From assembly GCA_002796835.1 (NCBI GenBank), contig LUGL01000004.1:25298-70963 (forward strand): a stretch of DNA of 45,666 nucleotides, written 5' to 3'. This document shows positions 14,599 through 29,885 of this stretch, one piece after another. Origin of the DNA: Elainella saxicola E1 (GTDB lineage: Bacteria > Cyanobacteriota > Cyanobacteriia > Elainellales > Elainellaceae). The notes under the pieces are model-generated. The model did not search any database, had not been told where the DNA came from, and saw only the letters and a program-made list of their open reading frames with translations. Each line of letters starts with the position of its first letter. Within the stretch, counting starts at the first letter, position 1. A program made the translations under genes and the position numbers.

Positions 14599-17500
14599 CT
14601 AGAAAGTAAAATGGCGTGAGCCTAGCGTATCGCTATTCACATCTTGGAGCAGGGCAAGGTTACGCCAGCCACTGACATCCACTTGAACCAGGGTGTCTTT
14701 ACCCCGCTGTTTGAACCGTACATCTTCCATTGATCCAGCTGAACCTTTAAACAACTGCTTCAAGTTAAAGTGGTCCTTGAGAATTTCAAAATCAGTGATG
14801 ACATCACTCATATCCTTGACAGAACTGTAGATGTACTGATCGCGGCCTTGTCCTCCTGTAATTCGGTCTTTACCGAAACCACCCACGATTCGATCGTTCC
14901 CTCGATCGCCAATCAGTGTGTCATTCCCCTCGCCGCCCAGCAACAGATCATTCTCTTCATTGCCGGTGATGCGATCGTTCCCCTGGCCACCGTCAAGATA
15001 GTCTTTGCCACGACCACCATTTAGGATATCGTCTCCCTCCTCACCCAACATTCTGTCATTACCTGTTCCACCGTTGAGGATATCGTTTTCTGTACCACCT
15101 TTCATATCATCATCGTTGCTGCCGCCATGAATGATGTCATCTCCTGCGTCACCCCGCAGAACATCTTTATCACTGCCGCCGTTGATGATATCGTTGCCGT
15201 TGCCACCGCTTAAGATGTCTAGATCACTATATCCGTTTAGAATATCGTTTTCATCACCACCGGTGACGCGATCGGACCCTTGACTTGCATTGCCATGCTT
15301 GGGAGGTTCAAGGTAATCCGCGATGCCGTTGCTATCTTGATCAGGAGAAGCGGGCAGGGGTTTACCAGCGCTGCCAAACCGATTGGAATTCTGATCGATC
15401 GTATCGATTAAGCCATCTCTGTCTTGATCGTCACCGTCAACAATGCCGTCTCCATTTTGATCAAAAACCTGATTGCCATATTCTTGAATATCGGGAATGC
15501 CATCATTGTCACTGTCGAGATCTCGATAGTTGGGGATGCGATCGCCATCAGTATCGGGTGGAGTCAGCGGATTGCCGCCGATTGCTCGATCGATTGAATC
15601 TTCAATGCCGTTGTGATTGGTATCTACAGGTGTACCGTTACCGATAATGCCATCTCGATCCGGATCGCTACCGCCTGCTTCAATCACATCAGGAATGCTG
15701 TCGTTATCAGAATCCAGATCGCGGTAGTCAGGTACTTGATCGCCATCGGTATCGGGAATGGATAAAGGATTACCGTTCTGCTTAGGCTCGACCACATCTG
15801 GTAAACCATTGCCGTCAGTGTCGGTGGGCGTTCCTGTTCCAATTACTCCATCGCCATCTGGATCGCTACCGTTTGCCTCAATCACATCCAGAATGCCGTC
15901 ATTGTCGCTATCTCGATCCTGGAAGTCGCGCTTGCCGTCTCCATCAGTGTCGAACAGAGGCAGTGGGATACCGCCTAAGTTCAGGTCAATGCGATCGGAC
16001 AAACCATCATGATTCTGGTCGATGAAGTTGTCAATAATGCCATCGCCGTTCAGATCGGTGCCGCCGCCTTCTTTAACATCCGGAATCCCATCATTGTCGC
16101 TGTCTAGATCGAGTGTATCTGGGATGCCATCCTGATCTGTATCATTGTTGCCTTCATCGATATCCGGAATGCCGTCATTGTCATCGTCGAGGTCGTTGGA
16201 GTTGGGAATGCCATCTCCATCAGTATCTGTGATGTCGAAATTGAAGCTACCAAAGACTCCCTTCTTGCTGTCAATACTATCGGCAATACCATCGCGATCG
16301 AGATCGGTAGGATCATCAATCCGACCATCTGAGTTGGCATCGGGAGTATTCGGACCAGCGGGCAGCTTCGCTTCTAAGCGATCGGGCACGCCATTGTTAT
16401 TGCGGTCAAGTTCCTGGTAGTCAGGAATAGAATCCTGATCTGTATCGGGTAATTGAGTCTTGTTGGGACCATTGTTGTCCCCAAATTGATTGGGAGAACC
16501 ATCAACTAAATCTCGGATGCCATCTTGATCGGTATCTCCTGGATCCACAACCCCATCGCGATCCTTGTCAATCTGATCTGGATTGAAGCCTGCCTCTGTC
16601 AGATCGGATAAGCCATCATTGTCGGTATCCAGATCTCGGAAGTCTGCGGCCCCATCACTATCGGTGTCGGGAACGAGAAGCGGCGTACCGTTCTTGGGCT
16701 CAACCGTATCTGCTAAACCATTACTATTACTGTCAACTCCATCAACAAACCCGTTGCCATCTGCATCGATCCCTCCAGCTTCAATGACATCGTTAATCCC
16801 ATCGTTGTCAGAATCCAGATCCTGGAAGTCCCGAACGCCGTCCTTGTCTGTGTCAACAATGATGTAGTTGAGTTGGCCGCTATCTGCCGAGGTTTCGACT
16901 GCATTTGCTAAGCCATTTGTGCCAAAAGCATTTGTAGAATCAATTACCCCATCATTATTAGTGTCGAGTGCTGCAACTTGAGCGAAGGTGAGACCGCTTT
17001 CCTTCAAGTCGGTGATGCCGTCATTATCGGAATCCAAATCGAGAGAATCAATAATTCCATCACCATCGGTATCACGGTTAGGATTGCCGCTCAATTCATC
17101 AACGTCACGAATTCCATCATTGTCGCTGTCCAAATCGTTAACATCGGCAATACCGTCTCCGTCAGTATCGACACTGCTGTGGAAAATGGTTCGAGTCGCT
17201 TGGATCGCTGGATTGCCTGCTAAATCCTGAACATCTGCGGTGATGATTTCGCTGGACTGTAGGGCTTGAGCATCAGTCGGAGAAATATCTAATGTCCAGC
17301 TATTGTTGGTGACGTTTGCGTTGTAGGTGTTGCCATTCAGAACGATTGTAACGACTTGTCCGTTTTCTACTCCGGTGGTTGTGCCGTTGATTGTGACAGG
17401 TGAGTCATCCTCTAAAGCATCAACAATGTCGTCAACTGCAACTAGATTAATCGCGATCGTTGGAATTGCTGTATCAACGGTTAGAGTTGCTGTGTTATTC

Positions 17501-20500
17501 GCATCTGCCCCGTCACTGTTTTGATTACCAGCGGCATCCGAGAACTTGCTGTTGTCAACATGGATAACGCCATTCGTGGTACTATTGGCAGTTGGCGTGA
17601 AGGTTGCAGTATAAGTTGTGCCGCTACCTGTAAAGTTACTGAGCGCCCCCCCTGTGACATCAATATCGGTTGCGTTAAAGTCTGTGGAAGCTTCAGAGAG
17701 GGTGAAGGTGATGGTTGCAGTGTCACCAGCCTTCAGAGCAGATTTGTCAGAAGTAATGGCGATCGTCGGAAGAATAGTATCAACGGTCAGAGTAGCTTTG
17801 TTGTTGGCATCCGCACCATCGATATTTTGATTGCCTGCTGCATCTGAGAACTTGTTACTGGCGACGCTGATAACTCCATTAGTGCTGCTGTTTGCTGTAG
17901 GAGTGAACGTTGCAGTATAGGTTGTGCCTTTACCCACAAAGTTGCTGAGTGTTCCACCTGTTACTGCAATATCAGATGCATCAAAATCGGTGGAAGCTTC
18001 AGAGAGGGTGAAGGTAATCGTTGCAGTATCGCCATCTTTAAGAGCAGACTTGTCAGAAGTAATGGCGATCGTGGGGAGTACAGTATTGACGGTTAGAGTT
18101 GCTGTGTTATTCGTGTCAGCCCCGTCATTGTTCTGATTGTCAGCAGCATCTGAGAATTTGCTGTTGTCAACGTGAATTACGCCATTGGTGGTGCTGTTTG
18201 CATCTGGAGTGAAGATTGCAGTATAGGTTGTACCACTCCCTGTGAAGTTAGAGAGAGTGCCACCTGTAACAGCGATATCAGACACATCAAAATCCGTAGA
18301 GGATTCAGAGATTGTAAAAGTGAGAGTTGCGGTATCACCTGCTTTGAGATTGGACTTGTCGCTAGTGATGGCGATCTTCGGAAGAACCGTATCAACGGTC
18401 AGAGTCGCTGTATTATTAGCATCAGCGCCATCATTGTTCTGGTTGCCAGCAGCATCTGAAAATTTATTGCTGGCAACGCTAATCACGCCATTGGTAGTGC
18501 TGTTAGTTGTGGGAGTGAATGTTGCAGTGTAGGTCGTGCCACTACCTGAGAAGTTGCTGAGTGTTCCGCCTGTTACTGCAATATCGGACGCATCAAAGTT
18601 AGAGGAGGATTCAGATAAGGTGAAGGTGATCGTCGCTGTATCACCTGCTTTGAGATTGGACTTATTGCTAGTGATGGCGATCTTCGGAAGAACCGTATCG
18701 ATCGAGAGTGTTGTCGAATTATCAGCATCAGATCCATCTGCATTTTGATTGCCAGCAGCATCGGAGAACTTGTTACTAGCAACGCTAATGACGCCACTGG
18801 TCGTGCTGTTGACAGTCGGAGTGAACGTAGCGGTATAAGTTGTACCATTTCCTGTAAAGCTGCTGAGGGTGCCACCTGTCACAACGATATCAGAAGCATC
18901 AAAATTGTTGGAGGATTCAGAAAGGGTGAAGGTGAGGGTTGCAGTGTCACCTGCTTTGAGATTGGACTTATCGCTAGTGATGGCGATCTTGGGCAGAACA
19001 GTATCAACGGTCAGAGTAGCAGTATTATTGGTATCCGCACCATCGTTGTTCTGGTTGCCAGCAGCATCAGAGAATTTGTTACTGGCAACGCTGATTACGC
19101 CATCGGCAGTGCTGTTAGCTGTTGGACTGAAGGTCGCAGTGTAAGTTGTGCCACTGCCTGAGAAGTTGCTGAGTGTTCCGCCTGTGACAACCACATCGGT
19201 TGCGTCAAAATTCGTGGAGGATTCAGAGAGGGTGAAAGTGAGAGTTGCAATATCGCCAGCTTTCAGAGAAGTTTTATCAGAAGTAATGGCGATCGTTGGC
19301 AGAACAGTATCAATGGTCAGAGTAGCTTTGTTGTTAGCATCCGCACCATCATTGTTTTGATTGCCTGCTGCATCCGAGAACTTGTTGCTAGCAACGCTAA
19401 CTACTCCGCTCGTAGTGCTATTGGCGGTCGGAGTAAACGTTGCAGTATAAGTTGTACCACTTCCTGAGAAGTTGCTGAGTGTGCCACCTGTTACTGCAAT
19501 ATCGGACGCGTCAAAATCGGTAGAGGATTCAGAAAGCGTAAAGGTGAGTGCTGCTGTTTCCCCTGCTTTGAGAGCGGATTTGTCAGAACTAATGGCGATC
19601 GTCGGCCTTAATGTATCAACAGTGATAGTTGCAGTATTGTCTACATCAGTTCCGTCATTGTTTTGATCGCCATTAGCATTAGAGAATTTATTGCTTGCAA
19701 CACTAATGACGCCATCAGTAGTACTATCAGCCGTTGGAGTGAAGGTTGCAGTATAAGTTGTGCCACTCCCAGAGAAACCACTCAGCGTTCCACCTGTCAC
19801 AGTGACATCATCTACCGTGAAGTCTGTGGATGATTGAGAGAGGGTGAAAGTAACGGTCGATGTTTCTCCGATTTTTAGCGTATTGTCTGAAACGGTGATT
19901 GCAATTGTTGGGGTGGCAGCAACAGTGATCGTGCTGGTTGCTGTGTTGCTGTTTACCGTACTATCATTGGCGATGATGCTAATCGTCCGATCGCCTATTG
20001 TGACCGCTCCAGCAGTGTTCTGATAGGTGATGCCGCGTAACAGGGTTTGCAGGTCAGCATTCGGGATGTCTCCTCCTCCCTGTTTTGTGATGGTGACGAC
20101 CCCATTGTTCGCATTGATTGCAAAAGTAGTGGCACCGATCGTCGCTGTATCTGTTACAGAGCCACTAAGGGCGATCGTTTTACCGCCAATCGCGAGTTTT
20201 TCGTTAGTGCCGTCTTGTAGCCCAGTAATGTTTAGCGTCAGGGTATTGATGTCAGTTCCATCAGGATCTGCAATCGTGGCAACTGTGGTATCTGCAATTC
20301 CGACGGCTGAGCCATTCTGTGTAAAGAGGTTGCTGTAACCAGTACCAGAGTTTGCCCCATTCAGGTCGATGGCAGGTGGATCATTGGTTGCTACTACGGC
20401 AATCGTACTTGTGGCTGTGTTGCTATCGACATTGCCATCATTCACAACAACAGTGATCGTTCGATCGGTTGTATCTGGATTATCTAAGCTATTGCTAAAG

Positions 20501-23500
20501 GTGATAGCTTTAATGGCAGAGTCGTAGTTTGCCTTAGTCGCCGACCCAGTTAGGGTAACAGTAATTTGTCCTGCGACTGAAGTGTCAACGTTGGAGACAA
20601 TACCAGAAGGTAATGACCCAACAGACAGTAAATCTCCTGCTTTAGCATTTGTGAGGACAATGGTTGCAGACTCAATATTGGTGTCATCTGCATCGGTAAT
20701 GAGAGTATCAGTATCGGCGATCGCGACAGCGCTATTTCCTTCAGTCAAGGAGGTCTTGTAGTCGAAACCTGCAATGGTGCTGTTGTTGGCATCCAGGTCA
20801 AGCCCAGGCAGATCGTTCGCTGCTGTGATATTGACAGTGAAGATTGCTGTGTTGCTATTTGCTATGCCATCATTAGCGACGACTGAAAAAGCACGACTAC
20901 CGCTGGGTGTATCGGATGTGTTGTTGTATTTCAACGCATCAAGCAACGTTTCATAATCAGCTAATGGAGCAGCGCCTCCCCCGTTCTTACTGAAAGTTAA
21001 GGTTCGTGTATTACCACTATCGACAATGCTGTATGTAAAGATTGTTCCACCATAATTGATAGTTCCGGTTGCGGTAGTTCCTGTAATGTCGATGCTAGTT
21101 GCGCCCAGCAAGAGTTGATCGCCTGATTGTAAGGTCGTTTTATCGATGCTGACCTTCAAGTTTGCCAGATTGATGCTGTCAGCATCACTGAGGTTGATGA
21201 CTCCCTTGGCGAAATTAACGGCATTGGCTCCTGTATCTGAACCAACGACTTCTGTAAATGTCGCGGGATTGTTAGCACTGGTGGTGATCGGATCGGTTGA
21301 GTCTAGGTCCACAGCCGGTGGAGCAAGAATCGTAACTGCGATCGCCCCTGTTCCAGTCAATGCCCCTCCAGTTCCTTGAGCTCCCGCATTACCATCGTTG
21401 ATTGTATAGTTGATGGTTACAGAACCAGCAGGATTGGCTTCACTGTTCGAATAGGCAATTTGTTGAATGGCTGATTGAACTAAGCTGTTTGTCGCAGCAG
21501 CATTGAAGGTGAGCACTAAACGACCACTACTGTTGGTTGTGACTGTACCGATCGTCGTACCACCAACGACTAGACTTGCCCCTTCGACTAAGCTTGCTAA
21601 TGTTCCACTGTTGGTGAAGCTATCTCCACTGTTCGCACCACCATTTCTTACTAAAGTGAGAGTTGCTCCATTCCAGTTGCCGATCGCATCCAATTCTGGA
21701 TCGCTGATGGTAACCGTGTTGTCTAGGGCAATTGCTGAACCACCTCTGATAAATGTAGGTGTGTTATTGAGGCTAGTCGAGAAGCTTGGCGCATCATTAA
21801 CAGGTGTAACGGTTAGGTCTAAGGTGCTTGTAGCGGAACCGCCATCACCATCGCTGACAGTATAGGTGACTTGCGGAATGGGGCCATAGTAGTTGGCAAC
21901 GGGAGTGAAGCTATAGTCTCCATTGCTGCTAATCACCAAGGTTCCTTTACCGGCAATTGTGGCTGTATTATTTCCGCCTGCGCTTACGGTAAAGCTCTCC
22001 TGTGTGCTGTTACCATCTGTGTCTACCGTAAACTGGGTTACGGTAAGCGTTGCATTGTCAATGTCCGTGTCATATAGGAGTACATTCCCATTGATAGGTG
22101 TCTCCTCTGGAGTACTGCCAGTGTCTGGCCTGGAAACGGGAGCGTCATTCGTTCCGTTAATCGTAATGGTGACAGTTGCGGTTGCGGTTCCACCCTTACC
22201 ATCACTAATCGTGTAGTTAAACGTCTCTGTCGCTGATTGACCGACTCCAAGCTGATCAAATTTGTTGTTCGTGTTGTACGAATAGCTGCCGTTTGGGCTA
22301 ATTGTCAGAATTGCACCAGAAGGCAGAGTAATGGCAGTATTTGCACCAGAGACTGCGATACTACTGGATGTGCCAGCAGGAGTGACCGAGACAACCGTTA
22401 ACGGATCGCTATTCGCATCAGAATCTGCAATTGCATCCGTGATAATATTGCCTGTTCTTGTTGCATTCTCGGAGACAGTATAGGTATTCGGATTCGCGAC
22501 AGGTGCAGTATTGCTTGGTACTGGAACGCTAATGCTGTCACTACTTGTATCTACAGCATCGTCATTGTCAACATAATTCGCGTTTAATAGCGTGCCCTGC
22601 TGCAAGTTTAGAAAAGCACTATTTTGCAGAGATAAATCTGCCTCGAAAATGCCTGTATTATTTCCTGTTTCTGTTAACGTCACAGTGATCCCATTCACGA
22701 TCGCTGTAACAGTCTCTACAGCAGTAGGATTGGCATTTTCGTCGAGATCGGTAACGCGCAGAAAAGCTTCATCGTTGACGGCATAAGTATTACCTGCAAC
22801 AGCGCCACCTAAAGCAGTAATAAATTCTGTCTTAGAAGGAGTTCCTAGATCTTGGGCTGTGATATTAAAAGTAGAATTAGCGTTAGCTGTAATACTCTCG
22901 TATCCTTCTTGAGCAACAACGCTAATGTTGTAATCTCCAGTCGTGTAGACTGTGTTCCAAGCAAATTCGTAGGTCTTAAAGGCATCATTTGCCGTGTCCC
23001 CACTCGGATTGATTACGTTGGCATTGGTCAATGTGACAGATCTATCTCCACTGGTGCCGGGTCCGTCAATGTTGATCGTTAGCCCAGTAATATCGTAATC
23101 TCCAAACGGATCAGACACTCGAACTCGAATGTAGACCGTTTCGCCTGCGTTCGCACTATTGCTGGAGAGTAAGGTGCCACCGTTGGCAAAAGAGTTGTTG
23201 TAGAACCCAATCAACTGAGTCCCATTACCGCTATTATTGTCAGCATCATTTACTTTGATGACAGTAGTAGTTGGCAGTTCTATGCGGGAAGGCGTGGTAC
23301 TGCTATCATAATCGGCTTTAAAGCTAAGTCCGTTCTGATTGTTAGTTACGACTAATTTAACCGCTTGACCTGCTGGAATGGTGACACCACTGGGTATAGT
23401 GCCTGTCCAAGTTAGATATCCTGTGGTTCCAGTTAGAGAAGTATATGTAAAGCTGCTCAGCGTAATAATCGAATTACCGGAGCCGTAAGATAGAGCAGCG

Positions 23501-26500
23501 GTCACATTGCCGGACGTTGGCGTTCCACCGGAAAGTCCACTAATGTAAGTGACAACCTTAACCTGTCCACTCGCTGGAATGACAAAAGCGTCAGCCATTG
23601 GGATAGATTGAATGAACGTGGCGGGTGTGGCAACAGCAGTAGATGTGATTGAGATGTCATCAATATAGATCGCATCGCTAGTTGGGCGATTAGCACTATA
23701 GCTAAAGCGAATTTTTGATGTTCCGCTAAGAACGGCGCTTGAATTTGTAACAACCGTAGTTGAAGAAGCGGTGGAGTAAGTTGTGAAAGCACTATCAATA
23801 CCAACGCCGCCACCATCAGCACTCTTTCCTTGAATCGTGCCAATTGTGTACCAAGTACTACCGTTCCACCCTTCAATTGTAAGTGTGTCAATTTGTGGGG
23901 AAGTAGTCCCCATACCAGCATTTTTATATTTGAAAGATAGGGTTGCATTGCTGGCTAACGCTGCTGAGAACGATCGCTCAACAGAAGCTGAAACGCTACT
24001 TGTAGAGGTTGTACCAAATTGTAATCCAAAGCCACTACTTCCAGCAGTAGTTGTTAATTGTATTTCTCCAGTTGTAGGGCTAGATGTACCATCACCACTT
24101 TCTGTCCAACTGCCGGACCAGCCTGTACCTGTTGCATAGCTTGCGCTGCCTGAGCCGAAATCATCAGAGATAGATGTAGACCCTCCCCCTGAAGTGATTG
24201 CTCCAGTGCTTAAGGTCGTTGTGTCGTTTGTTCCAACTGGATCGATCCGATCCAAGTCTCCTGTGCTATCACCGCTAGCCGCATCAGCAGAAAGGTAGAG
24301 AACTTTTGTTTTAGTTGGAGCAGGTACTGTCGCTGTTGTTTGGTTCGCATTTCCGGTAGCAGTGTTACCATCAGCATCAGTAGGGGTTCCGGGCTTAGTT
24401 GGATTGTCAAAAACGCTGCCAAAAATGGGATCAACATATTCCACTTTAATGGAATCGCCTTGTACCATTTGCAGTGTACCGCTGTTGCTGCCGCCATTCG
24501 TGTTGAGGATGGAAGTGGCTAATGTGTTCTGGAAAATGCCAGTATTGGTTCCTGTCTCCGTCAGGGTAACCGTTTCTTCTTCTCCAGTGGTGACATTCAT
24601 CACCTTAACAGTCAGTGTTTCTGCAACACCTGTATTTTTGTTAGGATCCGCATCAACGACTCGAATGCCGATCGCCTGACCTTCCTGATAGGTAGATACA
24701 GTCGCAGAAAATGCCGAATCATAGAAAAAAACACCCCCATCTGAACTGTTAACTGTGACGATGGTTGGATTAGAGACCGTTTTTGTAACGGACTGAGTGT
24801 CTCCTGCAGGTGTTCCTGAGAAGGAGGCATCATTTGTGATCTTGAAATTTGCGTCTGCTAGAGCTTGGTTGATATCGCCTCTTACTTGAGCGCGATAGGT
24901 GAGGATTGCTTTGTCCCCTCGTGCTAAACCTTGAATACCGGGAGTATTGGGATCAGTATCTCCAATAATATAACCATCGTTCAGGGGAGAGAGCGGGAAG
25001 GCAGTCCCTGTTACATCATCTGGAATGGCGATCGTCCGTGATGTTCCATCTGCTTTGATGATGGTTAACGTTGTGCTGTTTGGGACATAAGTTGCACTGC
25101 TGGAAGGACTGAGCGTGTCGGTAACCTTGATATTGAATAATTCAATAACTGCTTTGTTCGTGACGCTAACCTTATACTCAATTTGTTCGCTGAGTTCAAC
25201 TAAACTGTTGTTATTGCTGACCCCAGTGCCATAATCGACTGTGCTTGCTTCTTTGGAGACTTTATTAAATACGTAATCTGGGAACGGTAAAACGGTAGTT
25301 CCCATGTCCAGGTAAGGAGTTCCAGGGGCGGCGACGCTGGGATCTTCCCCCCAAGCTGCGGTTAGTAATGTGCCGTCGGTCGTAAAGATTGTCAAGCCTG
25401 ATTGATTGTTATCGCTGGCATCGCGGACACGATAGGATTCTAAGGCTTTGATATTATAAGTTGTGTCAACCGTTCCATCACCGTTGTAGTCAATATACAA
25501 GGTGGTATCTGCTGTGGCGGTAACCCAGACAGGGCTACCATTGTTTGCAGTTTTGGGATCAGCATTACCGTTTCCAGGTCCCCAACCCACAACAACTTTA
25601 TTGGTTAAATTGCTTTCAGGAACTAGAGCATATCCCCAGTCAAAAGATTGATTATTCGTTGGGCCTGAATCTAACGTTCCGACTGCGAAAAACCTACTAT
25701 TATCTGCCGTGTAGAAATGAGCCCCAGAATTAGGCATTGCTACGTAGGCTGATCCTTTAGGACCAACTGTAATTGATTGGCCTAAGTTGCCTTGGGTATC
25801 GTACTTGACGGTGATTGCTGTAGCATTAGGGTTATAGAGGAAAACATAGGCCGGGTTGGCAGTTGTTACCGTTGCCACAGGAGCATAGTAGCTACTGCTC
25901 CATTGATCTTTAGCAGACAGAGCAAACCACCGGTTTTCATAGCTAGAGCCAATATCACCCGTGATCATGTTCACTGAGATGGGCTTTTTAGCAGTTCCTC
26001 CTGTGGCATCTTGGGCCACAACGGTGGCTCCTTGAGATACGCCACCATTCACAAGGTAGGTTTGCCCTTCGTTTAATGTGATGGTAATATCAGTCGTCCC
26101 ATCGCCATTTTTATCGATCAGCAGCCTTGTATTATTTTGAGTTGCCAGAATGTGAAGTGAAGTATACTCAAACAGACGATTGGCTGTGTCACCAGGGTTC
26201 GCATTGTTGGTGACAGTATTGACCCCTACTGGGATTTCATAAGTGGTTCCCAGATTGCCTGCATCATAAACTTCGATCGCCCCAGCTAAGACCGTTCCTG
26301 GCGTTGCTGACCAGCCTGCTTTCGTCACAGAAATGGCTTTGTTCGAACCAATCTTGTCCCGCCCATCATAGTCAATTGCGAGAGGGGTGGTTGTATTGAT
26401 GTCGTTGCTGAGAACAATGGTCTGGCCGATGTTAAATAAGTCATTGACAGTTCCCGGCGCAATTCCATTAGTGAGATCTCCATCTCCCCAAATTTGGGTA

Positions 26501-27315
26501 GTGCTTTGGGTGGGATTGCTGAGGTCAGTTTCGTAGCCATCTTCCCAGTGATCATAAACAATCACTGTGCCATTGCTGGTCGCACTCAGCGCAATTGTCG
26601 TTTTGATTGCGCCTGTGACTGCTGCATTAATTGCTTTCAGGGAAGTTTGAATATCTGCTTCTGGCAGGGGCAGATAAAAAATCTGAGCAACAGCATAGGG
26701 TGACGCTGCTTCAATCGCCACTGGATTTCCGTTCAGATTGATAATGCCATGATCGTCCTGCTGCAGCAAGGCTGCTAAGTTCGTGCTTCGGTTGAGCACC
26801 AGATTTGCGAAAATCTCCCCTTCATCCCCGATGCTATCTATATTACCGTTGATACGATGGTCCAAATCATGACCCAGTTCTTCCAAGAGAACCGCTTGAA
26901 TCTTTTCAGAAGAGGCGGTCGTCAACCAATCTCCATTCAGATAAATTGTAGGTTGGTTGGTTGTTCCGATCGCACTATAGGCCCCAGCAACACCTGCAAG
27001 CTCACTGTTATCCAAGATTTCTACTTTGATGGAATAGGTGCCATTGAGAATGGCTTCTTGTAGAAATAAAGCATTGTCAGTCCAGCTACTGCCATCCGCT
27101 GTTGCACTAAAGGGGATAGCAAGCTTTGTCAGGAAGTCATCTTGCGCAAAGAAATTGAGTAAGGTTTCACGAACGATGGCCTGCGAGGTATCGAGAATAC
27201 CAACGTAAGCTGCTGAAGAATCGGCTAACTCAAAGTTGAACATGGGATGAGAGGCAGTCATGTTGATATAGGTAGAATTAGATGGATAGAAATGGGCAAT
27301 AGAGATTGGCGGCAT
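14599..27315 (-). CDS. giant RTX / TSP3 / Ig-repeat surface or secreted protein (4238 aa)
   Basis: No classical signal peptide at the N-terminus. Order of parts (approximate residues): metalloprotease-like fold with EELGHDLDH at 145-153 (first zinc His replaced by Glu); a large beta-rich region, 200-690, with YDHWEDGYETDL; a DUF11-like domain, 690-845; two TETGxNTGIF modules near 850-945 and 1500-1590; a jelly-roll carbohydrate-binding-like domain, 1045-1235; cadherin/VCBS-like repeats, 1590-2465 (NGTNDAPV, ISDGKGGTATATV); eight Ig-like repeats, 2469-3284; one further Ig-like module; thrombospondin type-3-like Ca2+ repeats, 3380-4005; about 16 RTX nonapeptides (GGxGxDxxx), 4016-4160; and a C-terminal export-type tail. 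The RTX end suggests type I secretion and Ca2+-dependent folding. An adhesin or matrix role is inferred. ATGs at 27261 or 27243 could be the true start; none has a Shine-Dalgarno. It follows the inverse autotransporter gene by 62 bp. Confidence 0.93.
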   Translation of the reverse strand: MPPISIAHFYPSNSTYINMTASHPMFNFELADSSAAYVGILDTSQAIVRETLLNFFAQDDFLTKLAIPFSATADGSSWTDNALFLQEAILNGTYSIKVEILDNSELAGVAGAYSAIGTTNQPTIYLNGDWLTTASSEKIQAVLLEELGHDLDHRINGNIDSIGDEGEIFANLVLNRSTNLAALLQQDDHGIINLNGNPVAIEAASPYAVAQIFYLPLPEADIQTSLKAINAAVTGAIKTTIALSATSNGTVIVYDHWEDGYETDLSNPTQSTTQIWGDGDLTNGIAPGTVNDLFNIGQTIVLSNDINTTTPLAIDYDGRDKIGSNKAISVTKAGWSATPGTVLAGAIEVYDAGNLGTTYEIPVGVNTVTNNANPGDTANRLFEYTSLHILATQNNTRLLIDKNGDGTTDITITLNEGQTYLVNGGVSQGATVVAQDATGGTAKKPISVNMITGDIGSSYENRWFALSAKDQWSSSYYAPVATVTTANPAYVFLYNPNATAITVKYDTQGNLGQSITVGPKGSAYVAMPNSGAHFYTADNSRFFAVGTLDSGPTNNQSFDWGYALVPESNLTNKVVVGWGPGNGNADPKTANNGSPVWVTATADTTLYIDYNGDGTVDTTYNIKALESYRVRDASDNNQSGLTIFTTDGTLLTAAWGEDPSVAAPGTPYLDMGTTVLPFPDYVFNKVSKEASTVDYGTGVSNNNSLVELSEQIEYKVSVTNKAVIELFNIKVTDTLSPSSSATYVPNSTTLTIIKADGTSRTIAIPDDVTGTAFPLSPLNDGYIIGDTDPNTPGIQGLARGDKAILTYRAQVRGDINQALADANFKITNDASFSGTPAGDTQSVTKTVSNPTIVTVNSSDGGVFFYDSAFSATVSTYQEGQAIGIRVVDADPNKNTGVAETLTVKVMNVTTGEEETVTLTETGTNTGIFQNTLATSILNTNGGSNSGTLQMVQGDSIKVEYVDPIFGSVFDNPTKPGTPTDADGNTATGNANQTTATVPAPTKTKVLYLSADAASGDSTGDLDRIDPVGTNDTTTLSTGAITSGGGSTSISDDFGSGSASYATGTGWSGSWTESGDGTSSPTTGEIQLTTTAGSSGFGLQFGTTSTSSVSASVERSFSAALASNATLSFKYKNAGMGTTSPQIDTLTIEGWNGSTWYTIGTIQGKSADGGGVGIDSAFTTYSTASSTTVVTNSSAVLSGTSKIRFSYSANRPTSDAIYIDDISITSTAVATPATFIQSIPMADAFVIPASGQVKVVTYISGLSGGTPTSGNVTAALSYGSGNSIITLSSFTYTSLTGTTGYLTWTGTIPSGVTIPAGQAVKLVVTNNQNGLSFKADYDSSTTPSRIELPTTTVIKVNDADNNSGNGTQLIGFYNNSFANGGTLLSSNSANAGETVYIRVRVSDPFGDYDITGLTINIDGPGTSGDRSVTLTNANVINPSGDTANDAFKTYEFAWNTVYTTGDYNISVVAQEGYESITANANSTFNITAQDLGTPSKTEFITALGGAVAGNTYAVNDEAFLRVTDLDENANPTAVETVTAIVNGITVTLTETGNNTGIFEADLSLQNSAFLNLQQGTLLNANYVDNDDAVDTSSDSISVPVPSNTAPVANPNTYTVSENATRTGNIITDAIADSDANSDPLTVVSVTPAGTSSSIAVSGANTAITLPSGAILTISPNGSYSYNTNNKFDQLGVGQSATETFNYTISDGKGGTATATVTITINGTNDAPVSRPDTGSTPEETPINGNVLLYDTDIDNATLTVTQFTVDTDGNSTQESFTVSAGGNNTATIAGKGTLVISSNGDYSFTPVANYYGPIPQVTYTVSDGDGGSATSTLDLTVTPVNDAPSFSTSLNNTPTFIRGGSAIALDNTVTISDPELDAIGNWNGATLTLVRNGGANSGDSFTNSGTLASLVEGASLVVGGTTIGTVTTNSSGRLVLTFNAAATNSLVQSAIQQIAYSNSEANPAGSVTINYTINDGNAGAQGTGGALTGTGAIAVTILAPPAVDLDSTDPITTSANNPATFTEVVGSDTGANAVNFAKGVINLSDADSINLANLKVSIDKTTLQSGDQLLLGATSIDITGTTATGTINYGGTIFTYSIVDSGNTRTLTFSKNGGGAAPLADYETLLDALKYNNTSDTPSGSRAFSVVANDGIANSNTAIFTVNITAANDLPGLDLDANNSTIAGFDYKTSLTEGNSAVAIADTDTLITDADDTNIESATIVLTNAKAGDLLSVGSLPSGIVSNVDTSVAGQITVTLTGSATKANYDSAIKAITFSNSLDNPDTTDRTITVVVNDGNVDSNTATSTIAVVATNDPPAIDLNGANSGTGYSNLFTQNGSAVGIADTTVATIADPDGTDINTLTLNITGLQDGTNEKLAIGGKTIALSGSVTDTATIGATTFAINANNGVVTITKQGGGDIPNADLQTLLRGITYQNTAGAVTIGDRTISIIANDSTVNSNTATSTITVAATPTIAITVSDNTLKIGETSTVTFTLSQSSTDFTVDDVTVTGGTLSGFSGSGTTYTATFTPTADSTTDGVISVASNKFSNANGDQNNDGTDVDNTATITVDTLRPTIAISSDKSALKAGETAALTFTLSESSTDFDASDIAVTGGTLSNFSGSGTTYTATFTPTANSTTSGVVSVASNKFSDAAGNQNNDGADANNKATLTIDTVLPTIAITSDKTSLKAGDIATLTFTLSESSTNFDATDVVVTGGTLSNFSGSGTTYTATFSPTANSTADGVISVASNKFSDAAGNQNNDGADTNNTATLTVDTVLPKIAITSDKSNLKAGDTATLTFTLSESSNNFDASDIVVTGGTLSSFTGNGTTYTATFTPTVNSTTSGVISVASNKFSDAAGNQNADGSDADNSTTLSIDTVLPKIAITSNKSNLKAGDTATITFTLSESSSNFDASDIAVTGGTLSNFSGSGTTYTATFTPTTNSTTNGVISVASNKFSDAAGNQNNDGADANNTATLTVDTVLPKIAITSDKSNLKAGDTATLTFTISESSTDFDVSDIAVTGGTLSNFTGSGTTYTAIFTPDANSTTNGVIHVDNSKFSDAADNQNNDGADTNNTATLTVNTVLPTIAITSDKSALKDGDTATITFTLSEASTDFDASDIAVTGGTLSNFVGKGTTYTATFTPTANSSTNGVISVASNKFSDAAGNQNIDGADANNKATLTVDTILPTIAITSDKSALKAGDTATITFTLSEASTDFNATDIDVTGGALSNFTGSGTTYTATFTPTANSTTNGVIHVDNSKFSDAAGNQNSDGADANNTATLTVDTAIPTIAINLVAVDDIVDALEDDSPVTINGTTTGVENGQVVTIVLNGNTYNANVTNNSWTLDISPTDAQALQSSEIITADVQDLAGNPAIQATRTIFHSSVDTDGDGIADVNDLDSDNDGIRDVDELSGNPNRDTDGDGIIDSLDLDSDNDGITDLKESGLTFAQVAALDTNNDGVIDSTNAFGTNGLANAVETSADSGQLNYIIVDTDKDGVRDFQDLDSDNDGINDVIEAGGIDADGNGFVDGVDSNSNGLADTVEPKNGTPLLVPDTDSDGAADFRDLDTDNDGLSDLTEAGFNPDQIDKDRDGVVDPGDTDQDGIRDLVDGSPNQFGDNNGPNKTQLPDTDQDSIPDYQELDRNNNGVPDRLEAKLPAGPNTPDANSDGRIDDPTDLDRDGIADSIDSKKGVFGSFNFDITDTDGDGIPNSNDLDDDNDGIPDIDEGNNDTDQDGIPDTLDLDSDNDGIPDVKEGGGTDLNGDGIIDNFIDQNHDGLSDRIDLNLGGIPLPLFDTDGDGKRDFQDRDSDNDGILDVIEANGSDPDGDGVIGTGTPTDTDGNGLPDVVEPKQNGNPLSIPDTDGDQVPDYRDLDSDNDSIPDVIEAGGSDPDRDGIIGNGTPVDTNHNGIEDSIDRAIGGNPLTPPDTDGDRIPNYRDLDSDNDGIPDIQEYGNQVFDQNGDGIVDGDDQDRDGLIDTIDQNSNRFGSAGKPLPASPDQDSNGIADYLEPPKHGNASQGSDRVTGGDENDILNGYSDLDILSGGNGNDIINGGSDKDVLRGDAGDDIIHGGSNDDDMKGGTENDILNGGTGNDRMLGEEGDDILNGGRGKDYLDGGQGNDRITGNEENDLLLGGEGNDTLIGDRGNDRIVGGFGKDRITGGQGRDQYIYSSVKDMSDVITDFEILKDHFNLKQLFKGSAGSMEDVRFKQRGKDTLVQVDVSGWRNLALLQDVNSDTLGSRHFTF
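14836..15268 (-). repeat. RTX nonapeptide (Ca2+-binding) repeat block
   Basis: About 16 tandem 27-bp units encoding GGxGxDxUx-type nonapeptides (for example GGNGNDIIN, GGTGNDRML, GGRGKDYLD). It sits at the C-terminal end of the giant protein, as usual for type I secreted RTX proteins. Edges are approximate. Confidence 0.92.
15300..17176 (-). repeat. thrombospondin type-3-like calcium repeat region
   Basis: About 620 residues dominated by DxDxDGxxD motifs (DTDGDGIPD, DLDSDNDGI). They are organised into a higher-order unit of about 70 residues in which a DFQDLDSDNDGI block is followed by DVIEAGG and then a PKxNGxPL-type linker. Edges are approximate. Confidence 0.9.
17464..19911 (-). repeat. 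eight perfect-length 306-bp tandem repeats (Ig-like domains)
   Basis: Units begin, on the minus strand, at 19911, 19605, 19299, 18993, 18687, 18381, 18075 and 17769, each exactly 306 bp (102 residues) with no indel. Each starts P(T/K)IAI and contains VTGGTLSNFSGSGTTYTATF and a SNKFSDAAGNQNNDGAD-type segment. The fold resembles bacterial Ig-like domains of RTX adhesins. Units 4 to 6 share a SNLKAGDTA variant and look most recently duplicated. Confidence 0.93.
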
Positions 27316-27377
27316 ATTTAAGCGGTATGCTGCCTATTCATTGGATGCAGTTTCAAATGAGCTAGAGCTGGGTTGAA

Positions 27378-29885
27378 TTATTCAAAACAAGAACGTGCCC
27401 CTGGTTTATTGGTAAAGGCAGTTGTATTCGGTAAAAACTCAACTTGACCAATATTGCGAGTAGAGACTGTGCTGAGATCGCCAACTTCAAATAAGCCTGC
27501 TACACCGAGAATGCTGTTATTATCTAAACGAATTCCAGAAGGAACAGAATTGTTGTTAACTACAACGCAAATATCAGTGTTATTACTGCTGCTAGTTACG
27601 TCTATATCAGGACGACCACCTGTTTGATTATTCTCTGATCGGTTATCTTTGATGTCGGCAATGATGGTACCTCGATTGTTAGCATTCAGGTCGATTCCTT
27701 GATCGCCATTGCCAGTGATAATGTTGTTGCTAATTCCGTTGGAATTATTGTCTGCATCGGTAACATACTCCAGGAACGAAACGTTGTTAGAAGTTCCGCG
27801 AATGCCTGCTCCCCGGTTATTTTGAATTTGATTGCCGTCAATTCCAGCTTCTTGGGCAACAACTTCATTACCAATAATTCGAATGCCATCTCCACCATTT
27901 TCACTAATGGTATTGTTGCGAATATAGGCTTCTTGCGCTGCCGTTCCAGAACCATTCAGCACCCCGCCTTCCATCCGAATCCCGTCACTACCATTTTGGC
28001 TAATTGTGCTTTGTTCGATCGTGACTTCTTGCGAGCCTGAGTTGACTGCCTGGATTTGTACCCCTTGTGAGCCATTGTTGCGAATCGTACCATTTTGGAA
28101 ACTAACAACCTGGTTACCGAAATTCTCAGCGCTGAGCTGCAGACCTTGTTCATGGTTATTTTCGATCGTGCTACCGGTAATCGAAACGGTTTGGGAAGAA
28201 CCTTGTTGTTGAGTTATTTCGCCAGATGCTGCAATCTCAAGGCCGACACGGTTATTGCGCAACTGCTGCCGTTCCATCGTGACTTCTACGGAATCATTGA
28301 TGCTGTCTTGAATCAGAATCCCTTGCCCAGAACCAGCTCCGCCGGTTGAATTGACGATCGTATTGTCAAAGAGAATGACACTATCTGAAACATCTTCCAG
28401 AAAGATGCCTCGTCCAGCATTGCGAATCGTATTATCTCGCAACTCCACATCTGCGATATTCTGACCGATGATTCCATTTTCTGTCGCATTGCTTAGATGA
28501 AAACCGGCAAGGGTGGTGCGATCGCCCAACGTCACAAGATTTGTAGCTCCAGCCTCGCGGATGTTTGGAAAGCGTCCGTCATTGGAGAGCGGCAGACGCA
28601 CCAGAATCCCGTTGTTGAAATTCTCAGTGGGCGAAAAAGGCAGACGCACTGGACGACTTGGAAAACCAGGAAATGGCATACCGGCCAATACTTGCACCGG
28701 AGCCTGGGAAAGTACTTGCACGCGATTGGGAATGGTAAATGCCGGAATATCAGAATTATTGCCGCGATCGATATAAACGACATCGTTACCATCAGAACGA
28801 GTTGCATCAAGTGCTGCTTGCACTGATCCGAAAGGCCGTTCAAACGTGCCATCCCCACCTTTTCTCCCCAGTGTGACATGCTGGAAGCGATAAGGCCGCT
28901 CTTCTTCAGGGTTCATCAAAGGCCGTTCAGTTCGATCGGTTTGTGTATCTACTTCTTGCTCTTGATTGACAATGATGTTCGGATTCCGCACGGTCGGTTC
29001 ACCCAGACGGAGTGCAACCGTTTCTTGTTCAGGAGTTTGGGCACGAGGATGAATCCGGGGCCAAGTGACGCCCACAGAGACAGAGACATTCGTGCCAAAT
29101 AGGTCATCGTTCTGGATCGCGGCCCCAAGATGGAGATGGTCATTTGGATTTGCTTCCAGACGTAGTCGCCAACCAAAAGCGTCATCTGAATGGGCACCCC
29201 CATAGTAATAAACACCACCAAACGCCCGCAGATCCCCATCCTTCCAACGGGCAACCCTTGCACCGACTTCCGCATCAAATCCCCCCAAGGCACTTTCCCA
29301 CAGTTGGGTAGTTTGTCTTGTTCGCTCATTGGTCAACATTAGCTGATGCCCTTGAAAGCCAGTCGAAATCTGGTTGCCTGAGTCAAAAGTCTGCTCAGAG
29401 AGTAAGTTGCTCGTGTCTCCGATCGGCAGATATCCATTGATACGAAAATCAACGACTTCACCCAGACTCTCAAGTCCCACCCCTAATTGGTAAAAGCTAC
29501 TGTCATCTGTTTGACGATGATCGGCTGCGAGGTATCCCCCCCAAATCCGATCGTTCTGTTCATCGTAAATACGGTGACCTAGAGCTAAGCTCCCCCCCCA
29601 ATGACCACCATTATCAACACGGAGATCGCCTTCCAGAAAAGTGAGGTTTTCACCTGGGGTTTGCCTCAATGGAATGAACCCTTCGAGTTGAGTCACTCCA
29701 TCATATCCTCCGCCTGAGCTGTGATGGCTGACACCGAGGCGCGGACTGATACGGAGATCGGCAGCTGAGCCATTCGTACCTGAGATGGGCTGAGTCTGAT
29801 CAGATCCTGTAGTCTGTGCAGCGGCGGGGTGAATCGTTCCTGCACTGAGCAGCACGATCATCATGAGCAACTTTGAGCTTTTCAT
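27378..29885 (-). CDS. inverse-autotransporter-type outer membrane barrel with parallel beta-helix passenger
   Basis: 835 residues. Signal peptide at 1-23 (LLMMIVLLSAGTIHPAAAQ). Residues about 40-290 look like the inverse autotransporter (intimin/invasin-type) beta-barrel: alternating aromatic and Gly strands (LEGFIPLRQTP, WGGSLALGHRIYDEQNDRIWGGYLAADHR, GGFDAEVGARVARWKDG, FGGVYYYGGAH). After a Gln/Glu-rich linker, residues 335-380 (GGDGTFERPFGSVQAALDA) begin a right-handed parallel beta-helix. Its rungs, such as IRNNGSQGVQIQAVNSGSQEVTIEQSTISQNGSDGIRM, resemble PbH1 repeats. The passenger is expected to be C-terminal to the barrel and displayed at the cell surface. It is the first gene of a likely operon with the giant RTX gene 62 bp downstream. 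Ligand unknown. Confidence 0.87.
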   Translation of the reverse strand: MKSSKLLMMIVLLSAGTIHPAAAQTTGSDQTQPISGTNGSAADLRISPRLGVSHHSSGGGYDGVTQLEGFIPLRQTPGENLTFLEGDLRVDNGGHWGGSLALGHRIYDEQNDRIWGGYLAADHRQTDDSSFYQLGVGLESLGEVVDFRINGYLPIGDTSNLLSEQTFDSGNQISTGFQGHQLMLTNERTRQTTQLWESALGGFDAEVGARVARWKDGDLRAFGGVYYYGGAHSDDAFGWRLRLEANPNDHLHLGAAIQNDDLFGTNVSVSVGVTWPRIHPRAQTPEQETVALRLGEPTVRNPNIIVNQEQEVDTQTDRTERPLMNPEEERPYRFQHVTLGRKGGDGTFERPFGSVQAALDATRSDGNDVVYIDRGNNSDIPAFTIPNRVQVLSQAPVQVLAGMPFPGFPSRPVRLPFSPTENFNNGILVRLPLSNDGRFPNIREAGATNLVTLGDRTTLAGFHLSNATENGIIGQNIADVELRDNTIRNAGRGIFLEDVSDSVILFDNTIVNSTGGAGSGQGILIQDSINDSVEVTMERQQLRNNRVGLEIAASGEITQQQGSSQTVSITGSTIENNHEQGLQLSAENFGNQVVSFQNGTIRNNGSQGVQIQAVNSGSQEVTIEQSTISQNGSDGIRMEGGVLNGSGTAAQEAYIRNNTISENGGDGIRIIGNEVVAQEAGIDGNQIQNNRGAGIRGTSNNVSFLEYVTDADNNSNGISNNIITGNGDQGIDLNANNRGTIIADIKDNRSENNQTGGRPDIDVTSSSNNTDICVVVNNNSVPSGIRLDNNSILGVAGLFEVGDLSTVSTRNIGQVEFLPNTTAFTNKPGARSCFE

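What the first reader, a model, noticed from the sequence alone, without database searches (positions are those of the whole stretch)
14599..29885. Two-gene locus: inverse autotransporter plus 4238-residue RTX/TSP3/Ig protein as a candidate surface adhesion system
An outer-membrane inverse-autotransporter barrel with a beta-helix passenger is encoded 62 bp upstream of a giant protein with calcium-binding repeats and an RTX C-terminus. One protein is expected to be membrane-anchored and the other secreted, so the first could tether or act beside the second. The 62-bp spacing and common strand suggest one operon. I do not recall a described system of this composition.
Basis: partly seen in the sequence, partly recalled or inferred. 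Interest (0 to 1): 0.72.

Follow-up and report, generated by a model that had tools for sequence, protein, structure and literature searches.

The report
Outer-membrane anchor paired with giant protein
Certain filamentous cyanobacteria keep two genes together, one for a protein that appears to sit in the outer membrane and one for a giant calcium-binding protein that appears to be secreted; the genes have stayed side by side and changed in step even where their order flipped, which suggests that the two products work together at the cell surface.

Summary
An 835-residue barrel/beta-helix gene and a 4238-residue Ig/TSP3/RTX gene lie 62 bp apart on the minus strand. The window's barrel protein itself misses the Pfam inverse-autotransporter model; 21 of 28 family members match it (E<=0.1).

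The pairing is conserved. I read 74 barrel neighbourhoods; of 68 in a tree, 31 have an adjacent same-strand giant and form two clades (26 and 5), and 37 have none. Gene order changed at least twice without breaking adjacency. In 36 genomes of the host's order, the giant's C-terminal RTX type occurs in 15 of 17 with the barrel and 0 of 19 without.

Partner giants share little beyond this C-terminus and, in 14 of 14 scanned relatives, an N-terminal DUF4347, which the window's giant lacks. Barrel and C-terminus co-diverge (r 0.92; 0.84 corrected by a species marker). All 26 main-clade barrels have a ~21-residue passenger insert that the other 42 lack.

Best reading: an inverse-autotransporter-like barrel tethers a type I-secreted giant by its RTX end. 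Docking and adhesion are inferred. My searches found no description.

The parts
27378..29885 (-). 835-aa protein: N-terminal hydrophobic leader (by eye), barrel, linker, right-handed beta-helix passenger
   Evidence: ORF, Pfam Beta_helix/NosD, IAT_beta in 21 of 28 family members, not in P0001 itself
29058..29753 (-). barrel region, residues about 45-276 (divergent IAT_beta; boundaries approximate)
   Evidence: family matches to PF11924; alignment A1
28521..28880 (-). N-terminal cap of the passenger, residues 336-455; holds 22 of the 47 positions invariant only in main-clade paired barrels (9 of the 22 lie in the insert)
28602..28664 (-). ~21-residue insert, residues about 408-428, in 26 of 26 main-clade paired barrels, 0 of 5 second-clade, 0 of 37 unpaired; candidate docking loop
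   Evidence: alignment; residue counts over all columns
27621..28520 (-). beta-helix passenger, residues about 456-755
   Evidence: Pfam PF13229; model pLDDT block means mostly 60-87 to residue ~700
27316..27377 (-). 62-bp gap between the two genes
14599..27315 (-). 4238-aa giant: N-terminal EE[LI]GH domain, Ig/cadherin-like domains, Big_12 array, TSP3-like repeats, RTX, C-terminal tail
   Evidence: ORF, Pfam, NCBIfam
26671..27315 (-). N-terminal domain (residues 1-215) with VLLEE[LI]GH...D...GDEG motif, no Pfam match; stands where scanned partner giants have DUF4347
17448..19776 (-). Big_12 Ig-like array, 306-bp period, 7.6 copies
15331..17418 (-). TSP3-like calcium-binding repeat region, about residues 3300-3995 (boundaries approximate)
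   Evidence: motif counts, partial conservation
14602..15303 (-). C-terminal RTX block and tail, residues 4005-4238: conserved in the 22 of 26 main-clade partner giants whose end was available

Best explanation
A two-gene surface system. The barrel protein is exported by Sec, inserts in the outer membrane and displays a beta-helix passenger. The giant has no obvious signal peptide and is exported by a type I secretion system encoded elsewhere, C-terminus first; its RTX end folds with calcium outside. The conserved RTX C-terminus then docks on the partner's passenger, probably on the cap and its pair-specific insert next to the membrane, so that the long variable body projects outward as an adhesin or surface fibre. 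Shown here: conserved adjacency, co-occurrence, co-divergence, the conserved C-terminus, the pair-specific cap. Inferred: secretion routes, direct docking, adhesion.
For: Adjacency in two barrel clades, 26 of 26 and 5 of 5 tree rows, and in 0 of 37 other rows (neighbourhoods). Gene order changed at least twice with adjacency kept. C-terminal type in 15 of 17 barrel-bearing and 0 of 19 barrel-less genomes of the order, with 8 changes on the best GatB tree (at least 5 on supported branches) and concordant independent contrasts. C-termini of 22 main-clade giants form one clade (92/91) apart from 15 non-partner RTX ends. Distance correlation 0.916, partial 0.839. By BLAST only 5-32% of the window's giant aligns to a partner giant, while the C-terminal 170 residues keep 43-66% identity in the main clade. 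Pair-specific positions concentrate in the cap, 22 of 120 against 25 of 715, and still 13 of 99 with the insert left out (p 0.0002). Precedent for an operon-encoded outer-membrane partner binding an RTX protein: FrpD/FrpC (PMC5233953, outline with abstract and part of the introduction seen).
Against: No direct evidence of binding, surface location or adhesion. Co-divergence is also expected of any cassette inherited as a unit. The cap insert is a single event on the tree (a clade marker), so its link to pairing has an effective n of 1. The second paired clade has neither the insert nor the same RTX end, so one docking mode cannot explain all pairs. In FrpD/FrpC it is the N-terminal part of the RTX protein, not its C-terminus, that binds the outer-membrane partner. 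One barrel-bearing genome of the order (G014) has no giant beside it. The independent-contrast test cannot reach 0.05 with five pairs (median p 0.0625). Support for the C-terminal clade is moderate (92/91), and its comparison rows are 15 selected RTX ends, none from a genome that gave a partner end.
Confidence: 0.5

Rival explanations
1. Two independent surface proteins that share regulation and function (for example both act in attachment or sheath building) but never touch; the pair is kept as a co-regulated cassette.
For: Explains adjacency, co-loss and co-divergence; gaps vary from 38 to 711 bp in the host's order.
Against: Does not by itself explain why the RTX end is the most steadily conserved part of the giant while its body turns over, nor the cap-specific conservation in main-clade paired barrels.
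Confidence: 0.27
2. The beta-helix passenger is a polysaccharide-acting enzyme or lectin that works on the sheath or slime to which the giant binds; the barrel displays the enzyme and is not a tether.
For: Profile match of the helix to an alpha-1,3-glucanase (2.8e-8); weak Foldseek matches to tailspikes and polysaccharide lyases (best E 0.01).
Against: Such matches are generic to beta helices; none reached E 0.001 in the fold search; no catalytic residues were tested.
Confidence: 0.13
3. The barrel is a dedicated outer-membrane exit pore or chaperone for the giant, in the manner of two-partner secretion.
For: Same-strand gene pair with an outer-membrane-type barrel.
Against: No POTRA or Omp85 family among the Pfam matches of P0001 or of the 28 family members; the barrel has its own passenger; the giant carries RTX repeats typical of type I export.
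Confidence: 0.06
4. Coincidental neighbours in the window.
For: Barrels of this family without a giant beside them, and RTX ends of other types, occur in many genomes.
Against: 31 of 68 tree barrels are paired, in two clean clades (2 changes, shuffled mean about 23); 15 of 17 against 0 of 19 co-occurrence.
Confidence: 0.01

Closest known systems
Inverse autotransporters, type Ve (intimin, invasin, YeeJ)
   Same: N-terminal barrel, C-terminal passenger; PF11924 matches 21 of 28 family members
   Different: Beta-helix passenger instead of the Ig- or lectin-like domains called typical (PMC6555100 and PMC6604945, passages seen); a dedicated giant partner gene
RTX adhesins of type I secretion (LapA, BapP and relatives)
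   Same: Giant, repeat-rich, calcium-binding Ig/cadherin/Big_9 body; LapA-type proteins share the RTX C-terminus
   Different: LapA is held by an N-terminal retention module and BapP is encoded beside its own type I genes (PMC12153261, passages seen); here the neighbour is an outer-membrane-type barrel and no type I genes were among the 16 of 58 window ORFs scanned
FrpD/FrpC of Neisseria meningitidis
   Same: One operon encodes an outer-membrane protein and a type I-secreted RTX protein, which bind (PMC5233953, outline with abstract and part of the introduction seen)
   Different: [quoted passage not shown] here the partner is a barrel with a beta helix and the conserved module is the C-terminus
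Two-partner secretion (type Vb)
   Same: Barrel gene plus giant exoprotein gene
   Different: No POTRA/Omp85 match; the giant has RTX repeats; the barrel carries its own passenger

Membership tests
Inverse autotransporter (type Ve) | IAT_beta barrel (PF11924) | tested here: inconclusive
   P0001 itself no match; 21 of 28 family members at E<=0.1, best 1.4e-8; of nine scanned singly, five above the curated cut-off, three below, one without match
Inverse autotransporter (type Ve) | barrel N-terminal to passenger | tested here: met
   IAT_beta match precedes Beta_helix match in 8 of 9 relatives scanned singly; the ninth had no IAT_beta match
Inverse autotransporter (type Ve) | Ig-like or lectin-like passenger (typical, not strictly required) | tested here: not met
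   Pfam Beta_helix in 27 of 28; no Ig-like family among the five families listed
Inverse autotransporter (type Ve) | passenger displayed outside, exported through hairpin intermediate | not testable with these tools
   needs experiment
RTX protein of type I secretion | GGxGxD nonapeptide repeats near the C-terminus | tested here: met
   PF00353, 6.5e-27, 7 stretches
RTX protein of type I secretion | uncleaved C-terminal secretion signal, export by ABC/MFP/TolC | not testable with these tools
   conserved C-terminal tail seen; no type I target-domain model among the five NCBIfam families listed
LapA-type retained adhesin | N-terminal retention module with LapG cleavage motif [TP]AAG in about the first 150 residues (motif as given in PMC8286594, passages seen) | tested here: not met
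   no AAG in the first 150 residues of P0002, read by eye; no profile of the module was applied
Two-partner secretion (TpsB) | POTRA plus Omp85-type barrel | tested here: not met
   no such Pfam match in P0001 or among the families listed for the 28 members
FrpD-like anchor | outer-membrane lipoprotein | tested here: not met
   no cysteine in the N-terminal leader of P0001 (sequence)

The most novel reading that the evidence does not exclude
A hybrid type V/type I surface system: a beta-helix inverse autotransporter acts as a dedicated receptor that catches the C-terminal RTX end of a type I-secreted giant as it emerges, anchoring it at the end opposite to LapA-type adhesins and leaving the fast-changing body and N-terminal domain free; different clades have re-matched barrels with different RTX ends.
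Probability: 0.4. Interest if true: 0.8.

Novelty: new variant of a known kind. Interest (0 to 1): 0.62.

Why it matters
How giant RTX proteins of cyanobacteria are held on the cell is open, as far as I know; a survey of fibrillar adhesins found no known anchor in nearly half of its proteins and expected new anchors (PMC8286594, passages seen). A conserved, co-diverging gene pair gives a concrete, testable anchor with a mapped candidate site (cap and insert) and a mapped ligand (RTX end). It would link two secretion pathways in one surface structure and give a handle on attachment in filamentous cyanobacteria.

Tried and rejected
PDB profile search found no outer-membrane barrel; its best matches were a beta-helix glucanase (2.8e-8), a leucine-rich-repeat protein (0.003) and a xylosidase (0.009). 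Promoter/terminator scan over the gap and upstream: no promoter-like site; two terminator-like sites, both on the strand opposite to the genes. RNA fold at the giant's start: z -0.81, not unusual. The first 766 residues of the giant as a marker of the pair failed: outside the own genome only the N-terminal EE[LI]GH domain matches (31-66 bits, 7 places in 6 genomes). Another order tried (that of G320) holds only one genome. A frame error made the translation useless; the right stretch was used.

What was not examined. Neighbourhoods were read for 74 barrels, not for every barrel listed: 17 of those, 20 places of those and 20 of those, chosen mostly from the top of each list, so the unread ones are mostly more distant barrels. 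In one search only two candidates per genome were scored, so its 19 of 386 is a lower bound. Some barrel-less genomes of the order are incomplete, which could hide a barrel or an RTX end. Dropped from the 68-row tree: G245b (fragment, unpaired), G516 (frameshift; a giant-end fragment lies upstream), G527 (contig end, pairing unknown), G412, G320, G208 (long branches, unpaired). Dropped from the distance test: 3 of 15 genomes without a GatB row. GatB tree: 30 of 36 genomes. The 76-bit limit of the C-terminal class was set after seeing the gap in the scores. In the C-terminal tree the rows for G463 and G423 come from the second, upstream giant and not from the one next to the barrel (noticed on re-reading). 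Main-clade C-termini were available for 22 of 26 (not G028, G515, G524, G529).

Full report
What is there. The window lies in a genome of 8.7 Mb in 284 contigs. The one named relative found by the barrel protein is a cyanobacterium, Elainella sp. Prado103, 70% identity. On the minus strand, 27378-29885 encodes 835 residues and 14599-27315 encodes 4238 residues, 62 bp apart. The first has a hydrophobic leader (by eye), a barrel-like region, and a right-handed beta helix (PF13229). The giant has Big_12, Big_9, cadherin-like and RTX domains, TSP3-like motifs, and a 306-bp tandem array. No type I secretion genes were among the window ORFs scanned (16 of 58 listed ORFs).

Is the barrel an inverse autotransporter? 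Alone, P0001 misses PF11924. Of 28 aligned family members, 21 match at E<=0.1. Of nine scanned singly, five exceed the curated cut-off, three fall below it, one has no match; matches cover only part of the profile. A two-sequence structure model leaves the barrel unresolved and folds the helix (pLDDT block means 56-87 over residues 441-700). I take the barrel as a divergent IAT_beta with a beta-helix passenger. Reviews describe type Ve passengers as Ig- or lectin-like (PMC6555100, PMC6604945; passages seen).

Conservation of the pair. In 36 genomes of the host's order, 17 hold the barrel. I read all 17 neighbourhoods, the window included. In all but one (G014) a giant ORF, or a piece of one where the contig ends, lies directly beside the barrel on the same strand, with gaps of 38-711 bp. 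In the window, G010, G012, G013 and G028 the giant is downstream; in eleven others it is upstream. I then read 17 loci from a phylum-wide draw (19 of 386 genomes with a match, a lower bound), 20 from the order of G096 (24 of 148 genomes with a match) and 20 from the order of G249 (36 of 63). That makes 74 neighbourhoods, chosen mostly from the top of each list. A tree of 68 barrels puts the 31 paired ones in two clades, 26 of 26 and 5 of 5 (both SH-aLRT 100), with 37 unpaired outside; two changes are needed against a shuffled mean of about 23. Of the six rows left out, four are unpaired, one (G516) is frameshifted with a giant-end fragment beside it, and one (G527) ends at a contig edge. Gene order needs at least two changes among the paired (23 giant upstream, 8 downstream).

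Specific co-occurrence. Every genome of the order has RTX C-termini of the general kind (36 of 36). The last 92 residues of the giant find a high-scoring class (76 bits or more, a limit set after seeing the scores) in 15 genomes, all with the barrel. The best match in the 19 genomes without it is 52.1 bits. The two barrel-bearing genomes lacking the class are G014 (no giant) and G028 (giant cut by the contig end). In G012 and G013 the class sits on another contig, while the barrel's giant lies at a contig end. By my own arithmetic the one-sided Fisher probability is about 2e-8, which ignores kinship. On a GatB tree (30 of 36 genomes) the barrel and the class each need 8 changes (at least 5 forced by supported branches for the barrel); five independent contrasts on supported branches go the same way in 4.8 of 5 on average and never the other way (sign test median p 0.0625, the limit for five pairs).

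Co-divergence and the conserved end. Barrel and C-terminal distances correlate at 0.916, and 0.839 with GatB distances held constant (12 of 15 genomes, permutation p 0.0002). C-termini of 22 main-clade giants (of 26; the others' ends were not in reach) form one group (92/91) apart from 15 non-partner RTX ends; those of the second paired clade form their own (100/100) next to it, with one non-partner row beside them, and two of those five rows come from a tandem second giant. Along the window's giant, partner giants align by BLAST over 5-32% of its length: scattered Ig regions, TSP3 repeats in some, and the RTX end. DUF4347 opens 14 of 14 partner giants whose start was scanned (9, 5). The window's giant is the exception: it has a domain with a VLLEE[LI]GH...GDEG motif and no Pfam match.

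A candidate site. In main-clade barrels 47 positions are at least 95% invariant there but not shared by the unpaired; 22 of them lie in the 120-residue cap at the start of the passenger, 25 in the other 715 residues (Fisher 3e-8). Nine of the 22 lie in an insert that other barrels lack; without the insert it is still 13 of 99 (p 0.0002). The insert is about 21 residues long: between fixed alignment columns the 26 main-clade barrels have 33-41 residues, the 5 second-clade ones 11-12 and the 37 unpaired ones 7-17. This is one event on the tree, so it is a pointer and not proof.

Mechanism. The most likely reading is an outer-membrane anchor that captures the calcium-folded RTX end of a type I-secreted giant. 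Shown: adjacency, co-occurrence, co-divergence, conserved end, pair-specific cap. Inferred: export routes, docking, adhesion. A precedent for an operon-encoded outer-membrane partner of an RTX protein is FrpD/FrpC, where the N-terminal part of the RTX protein binds (PMC5233953, outline with abstract and part of the introduction seen). Against the reading: cassette inheritance also yields co-divergence, and the second clade pairs without the insert and with another RTX end.

Novelty. Searches for inverse autotransporters with cyanobacteria, beta-helix, right-handed or RTX; for RTX adhesin gene pairs; for DUF4347; for giant RTX/cadherin proteins of cyanobacteria; for Elainella; for FrpD/FrpC; and for intimin with hemolysin-type calcium-binding proteins in cyanobacteria listed no paper that, from title and start of abstract, describes such a pair; lists were cut at 6 of 11 and 10 of 27. 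The passages seen of PMC12153261, PMC6604945, PMC6555100 and PMC8286594 mention none. Most subscription papers are not held, and the main genomic survey of the family (Heinz 2016, named) was not available.

Noticed in passing
window 26671-27315 (-); L021-L027: N-terminal domain with VLLEE[LI]GH...D...GDEG motif, no Pfam match, in 7 of 36 genomes of the order counting the own genome; resembles a metallopeptidase motif with the first His replaced (my reading).
   Followed up: partly
L073:6813-9164, L153:11420-13807, L081:11973-14129: Unpaired barrels in three genomes (G076, G431, G208) sit beside a PhoX alkaline phosphatase gene on the same strand: perhaps another partnership.
   Followed up: partly
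L071:8715-16196: In G098 the barrel is followed by a LanM-like lanthipeptide synthetase and a C39-peptidase ABC transporter.
   Followed up: no
L072, L149, L150, L151: In four of the five second-clade loci a second RTX ORF lies upstream of the first giant on the same strand; in three of them its C-terminus looks like the first one's.
   Followed up: no
window 27308-27334: An 11-pair inverted repeat covers the annotated start codon of the giant; the fold is not stronger than shuffles (z -0.81).
   Followed up: partly
G032:C3:469897-470166: A second RTX C-terminus scoring between the partner class and the rest (60.7 bits), not beside the barrel.
   Followed up: no
L030:14308-15756: In G010 a 482-aa RTX ORF on the same strand lies upstream of the barrel, with three ORFs between.
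   Followed up: no
L043:6901-7725: In G014, the one unpaired barrel of the host's order, a 274-aa ORF with an RTX-like match lies about 1.4 kb upstream.
   Followed up: no
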